The position numbers and the translations under genes were made by a program. A stretch of 64,000 nucleotides of DNA from Virgisporangium ochraceum (GTDB lineage: Bacteria > Actinomycetota > Actinomycetes > Mycobacteriales > Micromonosporaceae). Shown here piece after piece: positions 29,873 through 38,855 of this stretch (position 1 is its first letter; each line of letters starts with the position of its first letter). The stretch covers positions 1 through 64,000 of the forward strand of contig NZ_BOPH01000006.1 in the NCBI RefSeq assembly GCF_016863655.1, in the 5' to 3' direction. Below the pieces are notes generated by a model, which saw nothing but the letters and a program-made list of their open reading frames with translations, had not been told where the DNA came from and ran no database searches.

Positions 29873-31009
29873 TCAGTCGTCGGCGGTCAGACCGACCCGG
29901 AGACGGGCCAGCGTGCGGGTCAAAAGCCGGGATACGTGCATCTGGGATATTCCGATGCGCTCGGCGATCTGGGCCTGCGTCAGGTTGCCGAAGAACCGCA
30001 TCGCCAGGATGTCCTTCTCGCGCTCCGGCAGCGCCGCGAGCAACGGCTTGAGCGACTCGTGCGCGTCGACCGCCGCGATCGAGGAGTCCTCGGAGCCCAG
30101 CAGGTCGATCAAGGTGCTGCCCTCGTCGCCGCCCACCGGGGTGAACAGCGAGGTGGCCCGGTACCCGCCGGCCGCGGTCATCGCCTCGATGATCTGTTCC
30201 TCGTCGACCTCGAGCCGGCGGGCGAGGTCGGCGACCGTGGGCGACCGGTTCAGCTCCTGGGTGAGGTCGTTGCGCACCCGGTTGATGTCGAGCCGCAGTT
30301 CCTGCAGGCGGCGCGGGACGCGCACGGCCCAGCCACGGTCGCGGAAGTGCCGCTTCAGCTCCCCGACGATCGTGGGGGTGGCGTACGCGGCGAAGTCGGT
30401 ACCCATGCCCGGGTCGTACCGGTCGACGGCCTTGAGCAGGCCGAGCGCGGCGACCTGGCCGAGGTCGGCGGAGGCCTCGCCGAGCCCGGAGAACCGCCGG
30501 GCGAGCCGTTCGGCGAATGGCAGGCACAGCGTGATCACCTGTTCCCGGAGCGACGCCCGGGCCGCCGAACCCTCCGGCTCGGCGCACATGCGGCCGATCT
30601 TCTCGTTGACCTGATCGCCCCACTGCCCGTGCCGGCTGCCGGCGGGCGCGGCGACCGCGGTGTCGGCCGACGGGTCGGAGAGCCGCTCGGGCAATGGGTC
30701 GTAGGCGCCCAGCTGCTTCGCCACACCGGCGATCTCCAGCACCTGGAGCACCAGGCCGGAGGCTCCCCGGGCCATCAGCGACCCGTCCTCCTCGGCGAGC
30801 CGCTCGCGCACGCGGAGCAGAACGTTGACCGTGCTGGCGTCGATCAGCCGGACCCGCGACAGGTCGACGGCGATGTGCCGGGCACCCGCGTCGAGCCGGC
30901 CGAACAGGGTGAGCCGTAAACGTACGGTGGCCACCAGATCGAGTACGCCCTCGACCCGAACCACATCGACGTCATCGACCCGCCAGATGTCGAACGTGGT
31001 CTCGTCCAC
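29873..31009 (-). CDS. STAS domain fused to a SigB/SigF-type sigma factor
   Basis: 378 residues. Residues about 1-105 form a STAS anti-anti-sigma-like domain with strand HIAVDLSRVRLIDASTVNVLL and possible phospho-sites S59/T60. After a linker, residues about 145-378 form a SigB/SigF-type sigma factor: region 2 (FSGLGEASADLGQVAALGLLKAVDRYDPGMGTDFAAYATPTIVGELKRHFRD), region 3, and region 4 ending ISQMHVSRLLTRTLARL. Joining the antagonist and sigma in one chain is unusual. It could capture the anti-sigma kinase in cis. Last gene of the minus-strand signalling run. Confidence 0.9.
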   Translation of the reverse strand: MDETTFDIWRVDDVDVVRVEGVLDLVATVRLRLTLFGRLDAGARHIAVDLSRVRLIDASTVNVLLRVRERLAEEDGSLMARGASGLVLQVLEIAGVAKQLGAYDPLPERLSDPSADTAVAAPAGSRHGQWGDQVNEKIGRMCAEPEGSAARASLREQVITLCLPFAERLARRFSGLGEASADLGQVAALGLLKAVDRYDPGMGTDFAAYATPTIVGELKRHFRDRGWAVRVPRRLQELRLDINRVRNDLTQELNRSPTVADLARRLEVDEEQIIEAMTAAGGYRATSLFTPVGGDEGSTLIDLLGSEDSSIAAVDAHESLKPLLAALPEREKDILAMRFFGNLTQAQIAERIGISQMHVSRLLTRTLARLRVGLTADD

Positions 31010-31104
31010 GCCACCTCCAAGGGGCTAGGACTGTCGTCGTACCACGAGGCACAGTGACCAAACGAGCTGCGTCGTTTCTCATCGTGCCGGTGCGACGGGA
31101 AATG

Positions 31105-32943
31105 TCACACGACGGGCTCCACCGACTCCATGATCAGGATGACGCCGGGGGTGCCATCGCCGTCGCGCCGGAGAGGCGTCCCCATCACCTTAACCTCGAT
31201 CTGCCGGCCGCGCCTGTTGACCGAGGCCAGGCGGATCTCCTGGCTGCCGTCGTCGGAGCCGAGCAGCTTGCGGATCATCGGCCGCAGCTGGTCGGTGGGC
31301 AGCCCGATGTCGAGGTTCAGGAAGTGCCGCCCCACCGCCTCCTCGGCGCGCAGACCCCACAGGTCCTCGCAGCGGCGGTTCCACACCCGCACCTGGAGAT
31401 CCTGGTTGATCACCACGACGCCGGCCTTCAGGCTCACGAACACCGTCTCCAGGAACGCGTTCACCGAGTCCCGCTCCGCCGTGCGGTCCCGCAGCTCGTC
31501 GTTGATGGCCTGGAGCTCGTCGTTGGCCGACTGGAGCTCCTCGTTCATCGTCTCGAGTTCCTCGTTGGTCGACTGGAGCTCCTCGTTGGTGGTCTCCAGC
31601 TCCTCGACCGTCGACTGGAGCTCCTCGTTGGTGGTCTCCAGCTCCTCGTTGGTGGACTGCAGTTCCTCGTACGCCGTCTCGAGCTGGCGGTTGGCGTGTT
31701 CCAGCTCGTCCCGGAGCCGCCGGCCGGCCGTGACGTCGAGGAACACGAGCACCACGCCGAGCAGCCGGGACTCGCTGTCCACCAACGGGTTCACCTGAAC
31801 CTCCAGGTGCAGCACGTCGTCAGGACCGCGCCCGTACTCGATCCCGGTCACCCGCTGCGGACGTCGCTCGACCTGTGCCTGCTCGATGTAGCCGCGCAGC
31901 TCGACCGGCCGGTACGACAGCTCGAGGTCACGGAACGGCCGGCCCACGTCGCGGGCCGACACCCCGAACATCATCTCGGCCTGCCGGTTGGTGAGCGCGA
32001 CGAGGCCGTCACCGGTGACCACGACCTGCGCCACGGGGCTGGCGAGGAACGCCTCCGTCCGAACCCGGTCGAGCCCCGACAGTTCCTCGGCCGGCCGGCT
32101 CGGCACCGGCTGGATGTGGAACGGCCCGTTCGCGGGAAGGTGCCGCGGGACCTTCCGGAAGATGCGCCGCTTCAGATCGGCCGGCACGAACAGATCGCCG
32201 TGACTGAGCAGCATCTCCGCCTTGCCGAGGAAGAGCACCCCGTTGTCGGACAGCGCGAAGTGGAACCGGGCCAGGATGCGCGACTGCGCCTCGGCGTTGA
32301 AGTACATGAGTGCGTTTCGGCACACCAGCAGGTCGATGCGGGAGATCGGCGCGTCCTGGATGAGGTCGTTCCGTCCGAAGATGACCGATCGGCGCAGGTC
32401 GCTGCGGAACGTGAAGCGACTGCGGTTGGTGTCGAAGTACCGCTCGACGATGTCCTGCGGCAGGCCGGCCATCTCCCGCTCGGTGTACGAGGCCTGGCGG
32501 GCCTGGGTGAGCCCGTCCTCGTCGACGTCGGTGGCGTAGATCTTCACCCGCTGGCGGAACGTCTCGACGCCGAGAGCCTCGGCGAACGCGATCGCGAGGG
32601 TGTACGCCTCCTGGCCGCTGGCGCAGCCGGCGCTCCACACCCGGATCGGGCCGGACCCGCGGACCAACATCGGCAGGATCTCGGCGCGTAGGTGGTCCCA
32701 GGCCTCCGGGTCCCGGAAGAAGCCCGTGACATTGATCAGGATCGTATTGAACAGCGCCGTGAACTCGTCCGGATGGACCTGCAGGTAGTCGAGATACTCG
32801 GGGTACGTCTCGAACCCCGCCTGGCTCATCCGGCGGCCCACCCGGCGCATCAGGCTGGACCGTTTGTACCCCGTGAAGTCGAAGCCGCGCGATTCCTTCA
32901 GATAGATCAGCAGCGCCTCGAACTGCGGATCGGGCTGGGTCAC
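31105..32943 (-). CDS. cheR: CheR-type methyltransferase with PAS domains and long coiled coil
   Basis: 612 residues. CheR_N at about 10-60. The CheR methyltransferase domain at about 75-275 has the SAM motif VWSAGCASGQEAY at 102-114 and TDVDEDGL. A first PAS domain lies around 295-420. A coiled coil of 14-residue units (ELQSTNEELETTNE) spans about 430-495, and a second PAS domain covers the C-terminus. This is the CheR-PAS layout of sensory methyltransferases outside classical chemotaxis. No chemoreceptor gene is in the window. It sits between the kinase gene and the sigma gene in one run. Confidence 0.9.
   Translation of the reverse strand: MTQPDPQFEALLIYLKESRGFDFTGYKRSSLMRRVGRRMSQAGFETYPEYLDYLQVHPDEFTALFNTILINVTGFFRDPEAWDHLRAEILPMLVRGSGPIRVWSAGCASGQEAYTLAIAFAEALGVETFRQRVKIYATDVDEDGLTQARQASYTEREMAGLPQDIVERYFDTNRSRFTFRSDLRRSVIFGRNDLIQDAPISRIDLLVCRNALMYFNAEAQSRILARFHFALSDNGVLFLGKAEMLLSHGDLFVPADLKRRIFRKVPRHLPANGPFHIQPVPSRPAEELSGLDRVRTEAFLASPVAQVVVTGDGLVALTNRQAEMMFGVSARDVGRPFRDLELSYRPVELRGYIEQAQVERRPQRVTGIEYGRGPDDVLHLEVQVNPLVDSESRLLGVVLVFLDVTAGRRLRDELEHANRQLETAYEELQSTNEELETTNEELQSTVEELETTNEELQSTNEELETMNEELQSANDELQAINDELRDRTAERDSVNAFLETVFVSLKAGVVVINQDLQVRVWNRRCEDLWGLRAEEAVGRHFLNLDIGLPTDQLRPMIRKLLGSDDGSQEIRLASVNRRGRQIEVKVMGTPLRRDGDGTPGVILIMESVEPVV
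31540..31700 (-). repeat. Repeats encoding coiled-coil heptads in cheR
   Basis: Near-identical 21- and 42-nt units encode alternating ELQSTNE and ELETTNE heptads. The DNA similarity between units makes the length of this linker prone to change by recombination. Similar heptads occur in many CheR/PAS hybrid proteins. Confidence 0.8.
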
Positions 32944-32988
32944 GGCCTCACCGTAGCGCGCCGGTGACGCGGGTCACGCACCACACCG

Positions 32989-33702
32989 TCAGGCCAGGCG
33001 TAGGGTCGCCCAGACCACCTTGCCGTCGGCCACGTCGGTGCAGCCCCACCCGTTGGTCAACGCGTCGACAAGCAGCAGCCCGCGGCCACCGTTGTGACCG
33101 ATCCGGGCCGGCTCGAAGGACCGGTCCCGGACGGACAGGTGCAGGTAACGCTGCCGCAGGGCCACCGAGACCTCCACCCCGCCGCGAGCGTGCCGGACCG
33201 CGTTGCTGGCGAGCTCGGACATGACCAGCTCGGCGGTGTCGGCGATCTCCCGGTGGAGCCATCGCTCGCAGGCGTCACGGACGATCGAACGAGCCGTCGC
33301 CACGGCCTGCGGGCCGGTCGACAGAGCCTCGGTGATGCGACGCGGCGGGGTGCTGTCGACGGCACGGCAGGCCGCCACGACCGTCGAGATGACCGGGACG
33401 TACCGCATCACCGCTGTGCGTTCGAGCGCCGCCACGAGGTCCCTGCTCGGCGCGGCCAGCACCAGCGGGATCCCCGGCCAGGCCGCGGCGTGGCGCGCGA
33501 TCGCGGGAAACAGGGTGAGCGAGACGTCGTCGGGCACCATCAGGTCCGTGACGTCGACCACCACCACGACCGGCTGGGCGGCCACCGCCTTCAACAGGCT
33601 GACCCGGGCATCCGGCGCGGTGTCGAACGTCAGCGCGCCGGCCAGCCGGACGACGGCCGCCCGACCGGCCGGCCCGTCGACCTCGGTGAGATCGGAGATC
33701 AT
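32989..33702 (-). CDS. STAS plus HATPase_c protein, anti-sigma kinase-like
   Basis: 237 residues. An N-terminal STAS-like domain (about 1-105; VVVVVDVTDLMVPDDVSLTLF) is joined to a GHKL/HATPase_c domain with the N box ELVMSELASNAVRHARG and the G box GHNGGRGLLLVDAL. Family knowledge: RsbW/SpoIIAB-like kinases bind sigma or phosphorylate STAS antagonists. Having both in one chain is compact. Its ATG overlaps the end of the cheB remnant (ATGA). Confidence 0.85.
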   Translation of the reverse strand: MISDLTEVDGPAGRAAVVRLAGALTFDTAPDARVSLLKAVAAQPVVVVVDVTDLMVPDDVSLTLFPAIARHAAAWPGIPLVLAAPSRDLVAALERTAVMRYVPVISTVVAACRAVDSTPPRRITEALSTGPQAVATARSIVRDACERWLHREIADTAELVMSELASNAVRHARGGVEVSVALRQRYLHLSVRDRSFEPARIGHNGGRGLLLVDALTNGWGCTDVADGKVVWATLRLA

Positions 33703-34070
33703 CGGTCGTCGTCCGGATCGGGCGCCATCTGGTCGACGAGCCGCCTGATCAGCCGACTCGCCTGCAGGTTGTCGGCACCCGCCGCGTCGTACCGCTCGGC
33801 CGCGAGCCCGCTGCCCCGCTGGCGGGCCGCCTCGGCCATCTGGTGGCTGAGCGCCGCCTTCTCCTCGAGGCCGCGCAACGCCATCCACACCGCGCCCTCC
33901 ATGGCGGCACCCTGCTCGTCGAGGAGGGTGCCACCCGTCCAGGCGTGACCGACACGGCACCGGAGCCGTGGAGCGGGCTCACCGGGGATCTCGAACAGGG
34001 CCCCATGGCAGTGCGGACAGCCGAAGCCCGCCGGCCGGGCATTCGACTCGTCGATGGTCACGTCAGCCAT
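33699..34070 (-). CDS. Zinc-ribbon CheB C-terminal module, possible separate product
   Basis: 123 residues from ATG 34070: [11 protein letters not shown] and RCRVGHAWT form the ribbon, followed by helices ([25 protein letters not shown]). In intact relatives this is the C-terminus of CheB. If the upstream frameshifts are real, this frame could still be translated on its own, as it overlaps the next gene by ATGA. More likely it is the last fragment of the broken gene. Confidence 0.45.
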
Positions 34071-34641
34071 GATCGCGATCGCCGTCTCCCGTGCCAAGAG
34101 GTCGTCCCGCCCGTCCGCGCCACGGCAGCCGTGACGTGCTCCTCCACCGACCGCGGCATCGACGGGTGCAATGCCTCCCCGGAGTCCTGGACGAAGACGG
34201 TGCCGCCCGCGTCGGCGATCGCGATGGCTCCCGACGTCCCGTCGTTACGGCTGCCCGACAACACGATGCCGACCGCCCGGTCACGCCACGCGCGCGCGAC
34301 CGACCGGAACAGCGGGTCGACGGCCGGCCGGTGGCCGTTCCCGGTCGGCCCGCGCGAGAGGCGGACGCGCCATCGGAGACGATCAGGTGATGGTCGGGCG
34401 GCGCGACGAGTACCCGCCCGAACATCAGGTGCTCACCGTCGACCGCGTGGCTCACCGGCAACGGTCCGCACCGGCTCAGGATCGCCGGCAACGCGCTCGA
34501 ACTGTCACGGGGAACGTGCAGCACGATCAGCACGGCGGCGTCGAGATCTGCCGGAAGGCCGGCCACGAGCGCCCGCAACGGCTCGACCCCACCGGCTGAT
34601 GCGCCCGCCACGACCACGACGGCCGGGCCGGTGGCTGTCAT
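33699..34641 (-). pseudogene. cheB: cheB methylesterase gene broken by two 1-base frameshifts
   Basis: Three frames together spell one CheB with the zinc-ribbon tail found in many CheB proteins. Frame A (from ATG 34641) holds the serine motif AGASAGGVEPLRALV and HVPRDSSS. It goes out of frame near 34361-34370 after IVSDG. Frame B then reads [25 protein letters not shown] and the aspartate motif [18 protein letters not shown], ending [10 protein letters not shown] near 34103-34112. Frame C continues [19 protein letters not shown] and the zinc ribbon. Each break is repaired by one added base in a GC run. Either a true pseudogene or two sequencing indels. Confidence 0.85.
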
Positions 34642-34657
34642 TTATCTCACCCGATTG

Positions 34658-35056
34658 TCAGATTGAAGGCCCGCCTGGACGACGGTCACCTGGTTCACGC
34701 TCGCTACCCGACCCTGGCGATGCTGAAACAGCCGCGTCGACCGAGTCGTGCACCACCAGGATGGTGGTGAGGTTCGTGATGTCAAGGACGCGCCGCACCA
34801 GAGACCGGGCGCGGGCCAGCCGGAACGCCCCGCCAGCCGCGGTGACCTGACGGTACGCGTCTACGAGCAACTGCAGCCCGCTGGAGTCGCACACGGTGAC
34901 CTCGTGCAGATCCACGACGATCTTCGGCTGGTGCCCGGCCATCGCTTCCTTCAGCGCCCGGCTCAGCGGTTCGTGCGTGTCGAACAGGATCTTCCCGCGC
35001 ACGACGAGAACCGTCCAACCCGGACGGGTGTCGATACCGACCCGCAGTTCCGTCAC
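34658..35056 (-). CDS. STAS domain anti-sigma factor antagonist
   Basis: 132 residues. A single STAS domain with IVVDLHEVTVCDSSGLQLLVDAYR; the serine pair in CDSSG is the expected phosphorylation site for an HATPase kinase. The C-terminal 20 residues are charged and low-complexity. GTG 35056 overlaps the phosphatase stop (GTGA). It is the probable direct substrate of both the SpoIIE phosphatase upstream and the kinase downstream. Confidence 0.9.
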   Translation of the reverse strand: MTELRVGIDTRPGWTVLVVRGKILFDTHEPLSRALKEAMAGHQPKIVVDLHEVTVCDSSGLQLLVDAYRQVTAAGGAFRLARARSLVRRVLDITNLTTILVVHDSVDAAVSASPGSGSEREPGDRRPGGPSI

Positions 35057-36252
35057 GGCGCCAGCCGCCCGACGGCGTCGCCTGCCCACTCCACAAGAAG
35101 TAGCGTAGCGTCGTCTGCCGGCGGACCGTCATATTGCGCGAGCACGTCGTGGTTCATTCGACGCAGGGTCTCCGGTGCCGGCAGCCCGTCGGCGGCGTGC
35201 CGGGCCGCCAGCTCCGTCAGCCGGTCGATGCCGAACGGGGCGCCGTCGCGGGCCAGCGCCTCGATCACGCCGTCGGAGTAGGCGAGCAGGCGGTCACCCG
35301 TCTCCAACCGCACCTCCGCCGGCTCCTCGGCGGCCGCGATGCCGCCGAGCCCGAGCGGCAGCCGCCGACCGCCGTCCAGGGTCGCCACGATCTCGTTCTT
35401 GCGGAGCACCAGCGGCGGCGGGTGGCCGGCGTTCACGTACCGCACCGCGCCGCTCGCCAGGTCGATGGTGGCCAGTACCGCCGTGGTGAACCGGGAGTCG
35501 CCGAACTCGCTGGCCAGGGCCTCGTCGGCGGCCCGCGCCTGTGCCATCAGGCCACCGCCGGCCCGACGGACGGCCCGGGTGGCCGAGAGCGTCACCGCAG
35601 TGGTGAGCCCGGCCCGGAGGTGGTGCCCGGTCGAGTCGAAGATGCCCAGGTGCAGCGTCGAGTCGAACACGCCGTAGTCGAAGGCGTCGCCGCCCATCGT
35701 GTACACCGGCTGCAGGATCGCGGAGATCACGAAGTTGTCGGCCCCGTAGGTCAGCGGCGGCAGCATCTGCCACACCAGTTCCGCGGCGGCCGACATCGGC
35801 TCGCTGCGCCTGATCCGCTCGAACGCGTCGCCGTACGCCGACATCACCGCGATCAGGTGCCCCACCAGCGCCACGAACCGGTCGACCTCGGCCCGCACGG
35901 CGGCATCGGATCGGTCGGCCGCCGCGGCCTCCAGCCTGAGCACCCCCAGCCGCTCCGTGCCGTCGAGCAGCGGGTACCACAGCCAGCCGCCCTCGCGCTC
36001 CGGGCTGGTGGTACGGAACGCCATACCGGCCGGCGAGGCGTCGATCCGGAACGGGTCGCCGACGGCGGGGAACGGGCGCAGCCGGCGCTGCTCGTGGTCG
36101 CCGAGATACATGCGCGTGGTGGTGCCGGCCTTTCCGGCCGCCTCCGCCACCGCCGCCGGCAGCCGGCTCGGCGTGATGAACCGGGTGCGCGCCAGCAGCT
36201 CCGTGGTCGCGGTCCGCCACGCCCAGGCCGAGTCACTGCTCGCTTCGGACAT
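35053..36252 (-). CDS. SpoIIE/RsbU-type PP2C phosphatase with GAF-like sensor
   Basis: 399 residues. The N-terminal about 150 residues look like a GAF sensor (DPFRIDASPAGMAFRTTSPE...LLDGTERLGVLRLE). The SpoIIE domain (about 165-390) has GGDAFDYG, GIFDSTGHHLRA, VNAGHPPPLVLR, LLAYSDGVIEA and DDATLLLVEW, covering the metal-binding aspartates. It would dephosphorylate STAS antagonists and so release the sigma factor. First gene of the minus-strand run. Confidence 0.9.
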   Translation of the reverse strand: MSEASSDSAWAWRTATTELLARTRFITPSRLPAAVAEAAGKAGTTTRMYLGDHEQRRLRPFPAVGDPFRIDASPAGMAFRTTSPEREGGWLWYPLLDGTERLGVLRLEAAAADRSDAAVRAEVDRFVALVGHLIAVMSAYGDAFERIRRSEPMSAAAELVWQMLPPLTYGADNFVISAILQPVYTMGGDAFDYGVFDSTLHLGIFDSTGHHLRAGLTTAVTLSATRAVRRAGGGLMAQARAADEALASEFGDSRFTTAVLATIDLASGAVRYVNAGHPPPLVLRKNEIVATLDGGRRLPLGLGGIAAAEEPAEVRLETGDRLLAYSDGVIEALARDGAPFGIDRLTELAARHAADGLPAPETLRRMNHDVLAQYDGPPADDATLLLVEWAGDAVGRLAP

Positions 36253-36281: not shown

Positions 36282-38855
36282 ATGGAACGGTTCAGGTCTC
36301 CCGAGGATCGGCCGACAACCCAGGGTGAAGAGACGAGCGGACGGGAGCTGGAGTTGAGCGCGCGCTGGTGGTCCCACCCGGGTAACCGGGTCGTCGCGCT
36401 GAGCACAGTTCTCGCCGCGGCGATCGTGGCCGCCCAGGGCCTGCACCTGCTGTGGGGCGGCCCGCCCGACGTGGCCGGCCAGGTGGCCGCCGCGGTCGTG
36501 CTCGCGACGATCTTCTTCGTCACCGAGGGGTTCGTGATCCACCTGCGGGTCCGCCGCGGCGGGCACGCGATGAGCGTCAGCGAGCTCCCGGTGGTGCTCG
36601 GGATCTTCGCCGTCGACCCGGTCGTGCTGCTGGTCGCCCGCGTGGTCGGCGGCGGCCTGGGCCTGGCGGTACTGCGCCGCCAGCGCGGCGGCAAGCTCGG
36701 GTTCAACGTCGCGTTGATCGGTCTGCAGGCGACCGTGACCGCGCTGGTCTTCGCCGCGCTGGTCGGTCGGCCCACCGACGTGGGTCCGCGCGAATGGCTC
36801 GCCACCTACGTGGCGGTGTTCGTCTCCGACGCCCTGGCCGCGGCGCTGATCACCGTGGTCATCGCCCTGCACGACGACCCGGGCGAGCTGCGTCGCCTCA
36901 CCCAGGCCTTCCACGGGCTGCCGCTGGTGGCGGTCACCGCGACCATCGCGTTGATCGGTGCGGTGGCGATCCGGCACGACGCCCGGGCCCTCGCGCTCCT
37001 CGGCGTCGCAGGCGCGGTCACGTACATCGGCTACCGCGCCTACGTGCGGCAGAGCCAGGGGCACACCCAGGTCGAGGACCTGTACGCCTTCACCCGCGAG
37101 CTCGACGGCTCCCGCGACAGTTCGGAGGTGGCCCGGATCGTACTGACGCAGATCCGCGACCAGCTCCGGGCCGCGTCGGCCGAGCTGATCGTGCCCGACA
37201 CCCACAATCGCGGTCTCCTGCACACCCGGCTGACCGGCGCCGACGATCTGACCAGCGTCTGGATACCGGCCGACGGGCCGGAGCGCTGGTGGACGCCGGC
37301 CGCCACGGGTACCCCGGTGCTCCTGTCCCCGCTGCCCGACCGCCAGCCGCACGACGGCATCGCGGTCCCGCTGCCCATGGGCGACGGGACCGGCGTGCTC
37401 ACGGTGACCGACAGCCTCTCCGACCGCCCCACCTTCACCTCCGAGCACCTGAAGCTCTTCCAGGCGCTGGCGAACCACGCGAGCGTCGCGCTGACCAACG
37501 CGGCCCTGGTCGACCGGCTGCGCCACGAGGTCACCGAGAAGGAGCACCTGGCTCAGCACGACCCGCTGACCGGGCTGCCCAACCGCACGCGGTTCAACGA
37601 ACTGGTGCAGGAGGCCGTCGACGGCGACCGGCCGGCCGCCGTGGTGCTGATGGACCTCGACCGGTTCAAGGAGGTCAACGACGCGCTCGGCCACGACATC
37701 GGCGACGCGTTGCTGTGCGAGATCGGCAACCGCCTCAAGAGCCAGCTCGACGGGCGCGGCGTGGTCGCCCGGCTCGGCGGCGACGAGTTCGCCGTGCTGC
37801 TGCCCGGCGCCGGCACCGAGGACGCGGCGGCGGCCGTCACGGCCGAGCTCACCGCCGCGCTGGAACGGCCGCTCCCGGTGGGCTCACTGCGTCTCACCAC
37901 CCGCACCAGCGCCGGCATCGCGCTGGCACCCGGGCACGGCACCGACGCGCGCACGCTGCTCCAGCGCGCCGACGTCGCCATGTACTCGGCGAAGGACACC
38001 CGCTCCGGCGAGCGGGTCTACCACCCGTCGCAGGACCGGAACACACCGACGCGGCTGGCCCTGATCGGCGACCTCGGCCAGGCCATCGACCACCGCGACC
38101 TGCAGGTGGTGTTCCAGCCGAAGGTCGACCCGGCCACCGGCCACGTGACGGGCGCCGAAGCGCTGGCCCGCTGGCACCACCCGGAGCAGGGGTTCATCCC
38201 GCCCGACCAGTTCATCCCGCTGGCCGAGCAATCCGGGCTGATCCGTCCGCTGACCCTGCACGTGCTCGACGTCGCGTTGCGCCGGTGCGCGTCCTGGCGC
38301 CGCACCGGCCACGACCTGGGCGTCGCGGTGAACCTGTCACCGAACAGCCTGCTCGACACCGACCTGCCCGACGTCGTGGCCCGGCTGCTGCGCGAGACCG
38401 GCGTCCCGCCGCACGCGCTGACCCTGGAGATCACCGAGAGCAGCATCATGGCCGACCCGACCCGCAGCCTGCGGACCCTCGACCGGCTGCACACGCTCGG
38501 CGTCAAGCTGGCGATCGACGACTTCGGCACCGGCTACTCGTCGCTGGGCCGGCTCCGCGACCTGCCGATCGACGAGGTGAAGATCGACAAGTCGTTCGTG
38601 CAGCGCATGGCGGTCGACCGGCGCGACCGCGCGCTCGTCACGAGCGCCGTGCAGCTCGGCCACGCGCTCGACCTGGAGGTGGTGGCCGAGGGCGTGGAGG
38701 ACCTCGACACCTACACCCACCTCACCCGTGAGGGCTGCAACCTGATCCAGGGCTACTACGTCTCCCGTCCCCTACCGGCCGACGCCTTCGCCACCTGGCT
38801 CCGCGACCACGAAGTCATACCGGCCAGTCGTGCACCGGAACGTTCTCGTGCATGA
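36282..38855 (+). CDS. Membrane GGDEF-EAL protein with GAF domain
   Basis: 857 residues. About seven membrane helices (residues 35-240), a GAF-like domain (about 255-410), a GGDEF domain with an intact RLGGDEFAVLLPG, and an EAL domain with EALARW, VAVNLSPNSLL, ITESSIM, DDFGTGYSSLGRLRDLPIDEVKIDKSFV and EGVED. Both c-di-GMP synthesis and breakdown motifs look complete, so the balance is presumably set by the sensor part. It is divergent from the phosphatase with only 29 bp between starts, and overlaps the convergent ligase gene by 41 bp. Confidence 0.93.
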   Translation: MERFRSPEDRPTTQGEETSGRELELSARWWSHPGNRVVALSTVLAAAIVAAQGLHLLWGGPPDVAGQVAAAVVLATIFFVTEGFVIHLRVRRGGHAMSVSELPVVLGIFAVDPVVLLVARVVGGGLGLAVLRRQRGGKLGFNVALIGLQATVTALVFAALVGRPTDVGPREWLATYVAVFVSDALAAALITVVIALHDDPGELRRLTQAFHGLPLVAVTATIALIGAVAIRHDARALALLGVAGAVTYIGYRAYVRQSQGHTQVEDLYAFTRELDGSRDSSEVARIVLTQIRDQLRAASAELIVPDTHNRGLLHTRLTGADDLTSVWIPADGPERWWTPAATGTPVLLSPLPDRQPHDGIAVPLPMGDGTGVLTVTDSLSDRPTFTSEHLKLFQALANHASVALTNAALVDRLRHEVTEKEHLAQHDPLTGLPNRTRFNELVQEAVDGDRPAAVVLMDLDRFKEVNDALGHDIGDALLCEIGNRLKSQLDGRGVVARLGGDEFAVLLPGAGTEDAAAAVTAELTAALERPLPVGSLRLTTRTSAGIALAPGHGTDARTLLQRADVAMYSAKDTRSGERVYHPSQDRNTPTRLALIGDLGQAIDHRDLQVVFQPKVDPATGHVTGAEALARWHHPEQGFIPPDQFIPLAEQSGLIRPLTLHVLDVALRRCASWRRTGHDLGVAVNLSPNSLLDTDLPDVVARLLRETGVPPHALTLEITESSIMADPTRSLRTLDRLHTLGVKLAIDDFGTGYSSLGRLRDLPIDEVKIDKSFVQRMAVDRRDRALVTSAVQLGHALDLEVVAEGVEDLDTYTHLTREGCNLIQGYYVSRPLPADAFATWLRDHEVIPASRAPERSRA

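What the first reader, a model, noticed from the sequence alone, without database searches (positions are those of the whole stretch)
29873..36252. Partner-switching sigma circuit merged with CheB/CheR in one gene run
In transcription order: SpoIIE phosphatase, STAS, cheB, STAS-HATPase, CheR-PAS, STAS-sigma, with overlaps among the first four and gaps under 100 nt after. No chemoreceptor or CheA is present. This suggests that methyl-type signalling feeds a stress sigma factor rather than motility. The combination of a sigma fused to STAS and a kinase fused to STAS is, to my knowledge, not a described standard layout.
Basis: partly seen in the sequence, partly recalled or inferred. Interest (0 to 1): 0.75.

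Follow-up and report, generated by a model that had tools for sequence, protein, structure and literature searches.

The report
Methylation-linked stress sigma gene module
A soil actinobacterium carries, in one gene run, a stress-gene switch whose sigma factor and its inhibitor each have an extra 'STAS' domain, together with methylation enzymes borrowed from the chemotaxis toolkit; the inhibitor and the methylation enzyme sit side by side in dozens of related bacteria, including many with no chemotaxis genes, which suggests that protein methylation tunes a stress response.

Summary
The six genes and their order are real; the window is from a Virgisporangium-type actinobacterium (Micromonosporaceae). 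One correction: cheB is broken here by two frame changes, while relatives have intact copies. The claim of an undescribed layout is only partly right: a STAS-ATPase inhibitor (SipA) and a STAS-bearing sigma factor (sigma-SsdA) were described in Actinoplanes missouriensis in 2023. There STAS is C-terminal on the sigma; here it is N-terminal. I identified that species' locus: the gene directly upstream of sipA is the same cheR-PAS, which the paper's main text does not mention. A STAS-ATPase gene lies within 2.5 kb of cheR-PAS in 69 of 71 actinobacterial loci (0 of 9 outside) and in 11 of 13 same-order genomes drawn without regard to context. Eleven genomes carrying cheR-PAS have no chemoreceptor and no CheW domain over cut-off, so there it cannot serve chemotaxis. 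Best reading: a partner-switching sigma module whose STAS-ATPase anti-sigma is tuned by a PAS-bearing CheR, probably through glutamate methylation, as RsbM tunes sigma-B in Bacillus cereus. The physical link and the methylation target are inferred.

The parts
35053..36252 (-). SpoIIE-type protein phosphatase, 399 aa (RsbU-like)
   Evidence: Pfam SpoIIE E=3.4e-42; one of 23 SpoIIE matches in the genome
34658..35056 (-). single STAS protein (anti-sigma antagonist type) with phosphorylatable DSSGL; start overlaps the SpoIIE stop
   Evidence: TIGR00377 above cut-off, Pfam STAS, junction
33699..34641 (-). cheB-type methylesterase gene without receiver domain, broken by two frame changes (near 34354-34366 and 34097-34130)
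   Evidence: CheB_methylest halves in two frames; intact in L056
32989..33702 (-). STAS-HATPase, SipA-like anti-sigma, 237 aa; ATG overlaps the cheB stop
   Evidence: Pfam STAS and HATPase_c_2; invariant E, N, D, G of the kinase site; model pLDDT 93.2, pTM 0.85
31105..32943 (-). CheR-PAS-coil-PAS methyltransferase, 612 aa
   Evidence: Pfam CheR E=2.7e-51, CheR_N, two PAS; invariant SAM-site residues
31462..31722 (-). coiled coil of CheR-PAS (about residues 408-494) with tandem EExx(S/T)(S/T) heptads; candidate methyl-accepting helix
   Evidence: most conserved part of the protein, 0.85
29873..31009 (-). STAS-sigma fusion, SigB/F/G family, 378 aa, N-terminal STAS with DAST at the phospho-site position
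   Evidence: STAS_2 17-96, Sigma70 r2/r3/r4; TIGR02980 above cut-off
34705..34729 (-). SigB/SsdA-type promoter-like sequence GTTT-N15-CGGGTA before cheB
   Evidence: only such match in 64 kb; boxes kept in V. aurantiacum
31039..31063 (-). weaker SigB-type promoter-like sequence GTTT-N16-GGTAC before the sigma gene (pattern chosen after seeing it)

Best explanation
A partner-switching sigma-factor module with a CheR/CheB input. The STAS-HATPase protein is the anti-sigma. Its HATPase domain holds the sigma factor through the STAS domain fused to the sigma (shown for the A. missouriensis relatives, inferred here), while its own mostly non-phosphorylatable STAS domain packs beside the HATPase. The SpoIIE phosphatase keeps the single STAS protein dephosphorylated; that protein competes for the HATPase and frees the sigma factor (inferred from RsbU/RsbV/RsbW). 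The CheR-PAS protein senses a signal through its PAS domains and methylates glutamates on a helix of the module, most likely its own coiled coil, with CheB reversing this where cheB is intact; the methylation state sets how tightly the STAS-HATPase holds the sigma. The freed sigma factor transcribes stress genes and, through SigB-type promoters, its own module. Shown: genes, conserved pairing, conserved catalytic residues, absence of MCP and CheW in many carriers, promoter-like sequences. Inferred: every protein contact and the methylation target.
For: STAS-HATPase within 2.5 kb of cheR-PAS in 69/71 actinobacterial loci, 0/9 in other phyla; 11/13 same-order genomes and 0/7 of other orders in an evenly drawn class sample. 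In A. missouriensis the gene directly upstream of the characterised sipA is cheR-PAS; the locus was identified by SipA 243 aa/Ser229 and SsdA 379 aa/D68, F91, S100, L372 (PMC10733313). SipA's HATPase binds the STAS, not the sigma part, of SsdA. Kinase residues invariant in 106/106 STAS-HATPases; SAM-site residues nearly invariant in 95 CheR. No MCP or CheW over cut-off in 11 carriers, so no chemotaxis substrate there. CheB lacks a receiver domain, so CheA has no evident way to drive it. SsdA-type promoter matches before module genes: 61 against about 7.6 expected (some overlap, and the species are related). Precedent for methylation feeding a stress sigma: RsbM/RsbK.
Against: No contact or methylation was measured here. 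cheB is broken in this genome and absent near cheR in 9/71 loci, so reversible methylation is not universal. The sigma gene is near in only 31/71 loci, and many STAS-sigma/STAS-HATPase pairs have no cheR nearby. The model of STAS-sigma gives no defined packing between its halves (pTM 0.38). In A. missouriensis the deletion phenotypes of sipA and ssdA were explained without CheR. The SpoIIE and single STAS genes are missing from most related loci.
Confidence: 0.6

Rival explanations
1. CheR-PAS methylates the STAS-HATPase or the STAS of the sigma factor directly, not its own coil; the coil is only a dimerising signal helix.
For: The STAS-HATPase is the constant neighbour. CheR can act outside receptors: it methylates paired acidic residues of PhoP in Salmonella (PMC8546571, abstract seen).
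Against: No shared EE-type site was looked for or seen in the STAS-HATPase family, whose STAS half is poorly conserved, whereas the coil is the most conserved part of CheR-PAS.
Confidence: 0.2
2. The CheR domain has become a scaffold: CheR-PAS is a PAS sensor that binds the STAS-HATPase, and methylation does not matter.
For: cheB is broken here, truncated in A. missouriensis and missing near cheR in 9/71 loci, so reversal is dispensable.
Against: SAM-site and CRNxLMYF residues are invariant or nearly so across 95 proteins, and the CheB triad is intact in 73/73 complete copies, which argues for catalysis. RsbM works without a partner methylesterase.
Confidence: 0.12
3. CheB and CheR serve the genome's chemoreceptors and only happen to lie among partner-switching genes.
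For: This genome has 16 MCP-signal and 11 CheW matches.
Against: Three other cheB/cheR pairs lie in the genome, CheW matches lie on the same contigs as those, and eleven genomes carrying cheR-PAS lack MCP and CheW; the pairing with STAS-HATPase is conserved.
Confidence: 0.05
4. Two units that merely adjoin: SpoIIE-STAS as one, and cheB/STAS-HATPase/cheR/STAS-sigma as the other, with separate promoters and no functional tie between them.
For: A SigB-type promoter-like site lies before cheB; SpoIIE-STAS is missing at the head of the cluster in Dactylosporangium and most loci.
Against: SpoIIE and STAS also head the cluster in Kutzneria (L109), a different family; gaps are short and all genes point the same way.
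Confidence: 0.25

Closest known systems
SipA / sigma-SsdA of Actinoplanes missouriensis (PMC10733313, 2023)
   Same: STAS + RsbW-like HATPase protein paired with a SigB/F/G sigma fused to STAS; same cheR-PAS next door; SsdA-type promoter sequence nearby.
   Different: In SsdA the STAS is C-terminal, and its phospho-site position is Ala in all 25 readable relatives; here STAS is N-terminal with Ser kept. The sigma domains fall in separate parts of the tree. SpoIIE and a single STAS head the cluster here. The paper's main text does not mention CheB/CheR.
RsbM-RsbK-RsbY-RsbV/W-sigma-B of Bacillus cereus (PMC4574943, PMC12848376)
   Same: CheR-like methyltransferase encoded with a stress-sigma partner-switching module; methylation of a signalling helix (precedent for the mechanism).
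   Different: There the methyl acceptor is a hybrid histidine kinase and there is no partner methylesterase; here no histidine kinase is in the run, the candidate helix is in the CheR protein itself, and a cheB is usually present in relatives.
RsbU/RsbV/RsbW/sigma-B and SpoIIE/SpoIIAA/SpoIIAB/sigma-F partner switching
   Same: Phosphatase, STAS antagonist, HATPase anti-sigma and SigB/F/G sigma.
   Different: Here both anti-sigma and sigma carry an added STAS domain, and CheB/CheR-type enzymes are in the run.
Chemosensory adaptation enzymes CheB/CheR
   Same: Catalytic domains and residues; solved CheR structures match.
   Different: CheB has no receiver domain, CheR carries PAS-coil-PAS, and cheR-PAS occurs in genomes without MCP or CheW.

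Membership tests
SipA/sigma-SsdA system | anti-sigma with N-terminal STAS and C-terminal RsbW-like HATPase | tested here: met
   Pfam STAS 14-111, HATPase_c_2 131-233; model
SipA/sigma-SsdA system | sigma factor with a STAS domain at its C-terminus | tested here: not met
   STAS is N-terminal (residues 11-100), sigma regions 161-371; sigma domain outside the main sigma-STAS group. It works like SsdA but is not filed as an SsdA orthologue
SipA/sigma-SsdA system | HATPase binds the sigma's STAS, not its sigma domain | not testable with these tools
   two-hybrid result for A. missouriensis only
SipA/sigma-SsdA system | sigma recognises GnTT-n14-CGGGTA | tested here: inconclusive
   one GTTT-N15-CGGGTA before cheB, spacer one base longer; other SigB-type sigmas read such sites too
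Canonical RsbU/V/W partner switching | SpoIIE-type phosphatase plus single STAS with phosphorylatable Ser | tested here: met
   DSSGL motif
Canonical RsbU/V/W partner switching | anti-sigma and sigma are single-domain partners without STAS | tested here: not met
   both carry STAS
RsbM/RsbK-type methyl control of sigma-B | CheR-type methyltransferase gene in the sigma module | tested here: met
RsbM/RsbK-type methyl control of sigma-B | methyl acceptor is the signalling helix of a sensor histidine kinase encoded beside it | tested here: not met
   no histidine kinase in the run; the only long helix is in CheR-PAS
Chemosensory (MCP/CheA/CheW) system | works with MCP and CheA/CheW | tested here: not met
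   0 of 11 non-chemotactic carriers have MCP or CheW over cut-off; none in the run here
Chemosensory (MCP/CheA/CheW) system | CheB carries a receiver domain driven by CheA | tested here: not met
   methylesterase domain begins at the N-terminus in the window and in V. aurantiacum

The most novel reading that the evidence does not exclude
The CheR-PAS protein is a self-contained methylation sensor: its own coiled coil, with tandem EExx(S/T)T heptads, is the methyl-accepting helix, written by its CheR domain and erased by CheB, and it outputs directly to a STAS-HATPase anti-sigma without any chemoreceptor or CheA, an adaptation circuit for transcription instead of motility.
Probability: 0.25. 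Interest if true: 0.85.

Novelty: new variant of a known kind. Interest (0 to 1): 0.6.

Why it matters
What controls SipA, the inhibitor of the STAS-bearing sigma factor, was left open by its discoverers, who suggested post-translational modification or other molecules. This work names a concrete candidate, the neighbouring CheR-PAS (and CheB), conserved across the order and present in organisms without chemotaxis genes, so the question becomes directly testable by deletion and by mass spectrometry. If right, protein methylation would join phosphorylation as an input to partner switching in a large group of actinobacteria.

Tried and rejected
Gene order shared with V. aurantiacum was set aside as proof, because 18 kb around it is syntenic. 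Chemotaxis as the role was rejected for carriers lacking MCP and CheW. Weak sub-threshold MCP-signal matches (E 3e-5 to 8e-4) appear in six MCP-free genomes; in the three whose coordinates I worked out, they fall on the CheR-PAS coil. I do not use this as evidence, since many coil families match that region. A cis-inhibition model for STAS-sigma found no support (pTM 0.38). Mycobacterial RsbW3 was considered as a STAS-HATPase precedent and dropped, since the text describes it as highly homologous to RsbW1 and acting by dimerising with it. Paper searches on CheB/CheR with partner switching gave no account of this pairing; the library lacks most subscription journals, so this is weak evidence of novelty.

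Full report
What is there. The run at 36252-29873 (minus strand) encodes, in order, a SpoIIE phosphatase, a single STAS protein, a CheB-type methylesterase, a STAS-HATPase, a CheR-PAS-coil-PAS protein and a STAS-sigma factor of the SigB/F/G kind. The window lies on contig C6 of an 11.4 Mb draft genome. Its nearest named relative at this locus is Virgisporangium aurantiacum, whose contig (231,242 bases) has the same length as that of the same-genus genome G001. cheB is broken: its parts lie in three frames, while the V. aurantiacum copy is one frame. The cheB pieces still show dN/dS of 0.21-0.36 against V. aurantiacum, like the neighbouring module genes, so the breaks are recent or are assembly errors; I cannot tell which.

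Is the combination more than chance? V. aurantiacum keeps all six genes in order, but 18 kb around them is syntenic, so I looked further. A scan of 84,980 species genomes with a CheR-PAS alignment returned 80 loci. A second sample, drawn evenly from the class without regard to context, gave 11 of 13 cheR-PAS loci in the same order with a STAS-HATPase next to them and 0 of 7 in other orders. This genome has only three full-length STAS-HATPase genes at E<=1e-6. The constant pair is therefore STAS-HATPase plus CheR-PAS; cheB, the sigma gene, SpoIIE and the single STAS come and go.

Known relatives. Tezuka and colleagues described SipA (STAS + HATPase) and sigma-SsdA (sigma + C-terminal STAS) in A. 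missouriensis (PMC10733313). SipA's HATPase binds the STAS of SsdA and not its sigma part; loss of SipA blocks sporangium dehiscence through SsdA, and SsdA protects zoospores from oxidative stress. I recognised that locus in G183 (contig of 8,773,466 bases): the sigma-STAS protein is 379 aa with D68, F91, S100 and L372, and the STAS-HATPase from its ATG is 243 aa with Ser229, all as published. Directly upstream of sipA is cheR-PAS, preceded by a truncated cheB and a second STAS-HATPase. The paper's main text mentions neither CheB nor CheR and lists sipA/ssdA orthologues only in Actinoplanes, Pseudosporangium, Couchioplanes, Micromonospora and one Nonomuraea.

Two domain orders. In Virgisporangium, Dactylosporangium and others the STAS is N-terminal on the sigma (22 distinct cases); in Actinoplanes and relatives it is C-terminal (26 cases, 25 with the site readable). 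A maximum-likelihood tree of the sigma domains puts 31 of 32 sigma-STAS rows in one starred group apart from the STAS-sigma rows, which lie with the sigma factors without STAS. One odd row (L085) and open forks leave the number of fusion events unsure. The position of the phosphorylatable serine is Ala in 25 of 25 sigma-STAS and Ser/Thr in 9 of 22 STAS-sigma proteins, while the STAS of the STAS-HATPase has mostly lost it. Binding rather than phosphorylation of the sigma's STAS therefore looks like the shared property. The kinase residues of the HATPase are invariant in 106 of 106, so phosphorylation of the single STAS (DSSGL here) remains plausible, with SpoIIE as the counter-enzyme.

The methylation arm. 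CheR SAM-site residues are invariant or nearly so in 95 proteins, and the CheB triad is intact in 73 of 73 complete copies, with no receiver domain. Eleven genomes carrying cheR-PAS (Lentzea, Amycolatopsis, Prauserella, Nocardia, Saccharothrix, Kutzneria, Rhizocola) have no MCP-signal and no CheW match over cut-off; ten of them have the STAS-HATPase beside cheR-PAS, the exception being Rhizocola, which has only cheB-cheR. The same search finds 13-34 MCP-signal matches in Actinokineospora, Actinoplanes and Dactylosporangium. The coil between the PAS domains is the most conserved part of the protein (0.85 against 0.78 for the SAM domain and 0.64-0.68 for the PAS domains) and consists of heptads EELQST/EELETT, which resemble the Glu-Glu-x-x-Ala/Ser/Thr sites of chemoreceptors (general knowledge, not tested). 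In B. cereus, RsbM methylates a signalling helix of RsbK and keeps sigma-B off, with no partner methylesterase. This makes methylation of a helix within the module the most likely input. It is an inference; nothing here shows methyl transfer or a contact between CheR-PAS and the STAS-HATPase.

Expression. The published SsdA motif GnTT-n14-CGGGTA has one near match in the 64 kb window (spacer 15), before cheB on the right strand, kept in V. aurantiacum with a diverged spacer. Across the loci, such sites lie before module genes 61 times against about 7.6 expected; this count includes overlapping matches and related species, but spacers differ while boxes stay. In Actinoplanes the site lies between cheR and sipA. 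The module therefore probably feeds back on itself, and the six genes need not form one transcript.

Structures. The STAS-HATPase model is confident (pLDDT 93.2, pTM 0.85) and its halves match RsbV/RsbW and SpoIIAA/SpoIIAB structures. The STAS-sigma model shows no fixed packing of its halves (pTM 0.38).

Verdict. A real, conserved module. It is a variant of the SipA/SsdA kind of partner switching, with swapped domain order and a CheR-PAS/CheB arm that I found nowhere described in the papers available.

Noticed in passing
window 36282-38855 (+): A GGDEF-EAL protein with a hydrophobic N-terminal region starts 29 nt from the SpoIIE gene on the opposite strand; the region is syntenic in V. aurantiacum. 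A c-di-GMP link to the module is possible but untested.
   Followed up: no
G000:C69:28567-29283: A second full-length STAS-HATPase gene lies about 7 kb from a CheW/CheB/CheR cluster in the same genome.
   Followed up: partly
L056:4725-5741 and relatives: The module's CheB carries a conserved C-terminal CPxC...RCRVGHxW tail that looks like a zinc-binding ribbon, in about 70 of 73 copies.
   Followed up: partly
L141 and L196 (V. aliadipatigenens): cheR-PAS ends early in the coil (478-aa frame) with the rest in another frame, so this gene may also be broken in a congener.
   Followed up: no
L183:7311-8063 (A. missouriensis): A second STAS-HATPase sits upstream of the truncated cheB and cheR-PAS; many Actinoplanes loci likewise have two, one on each side.
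   Followed up: partly
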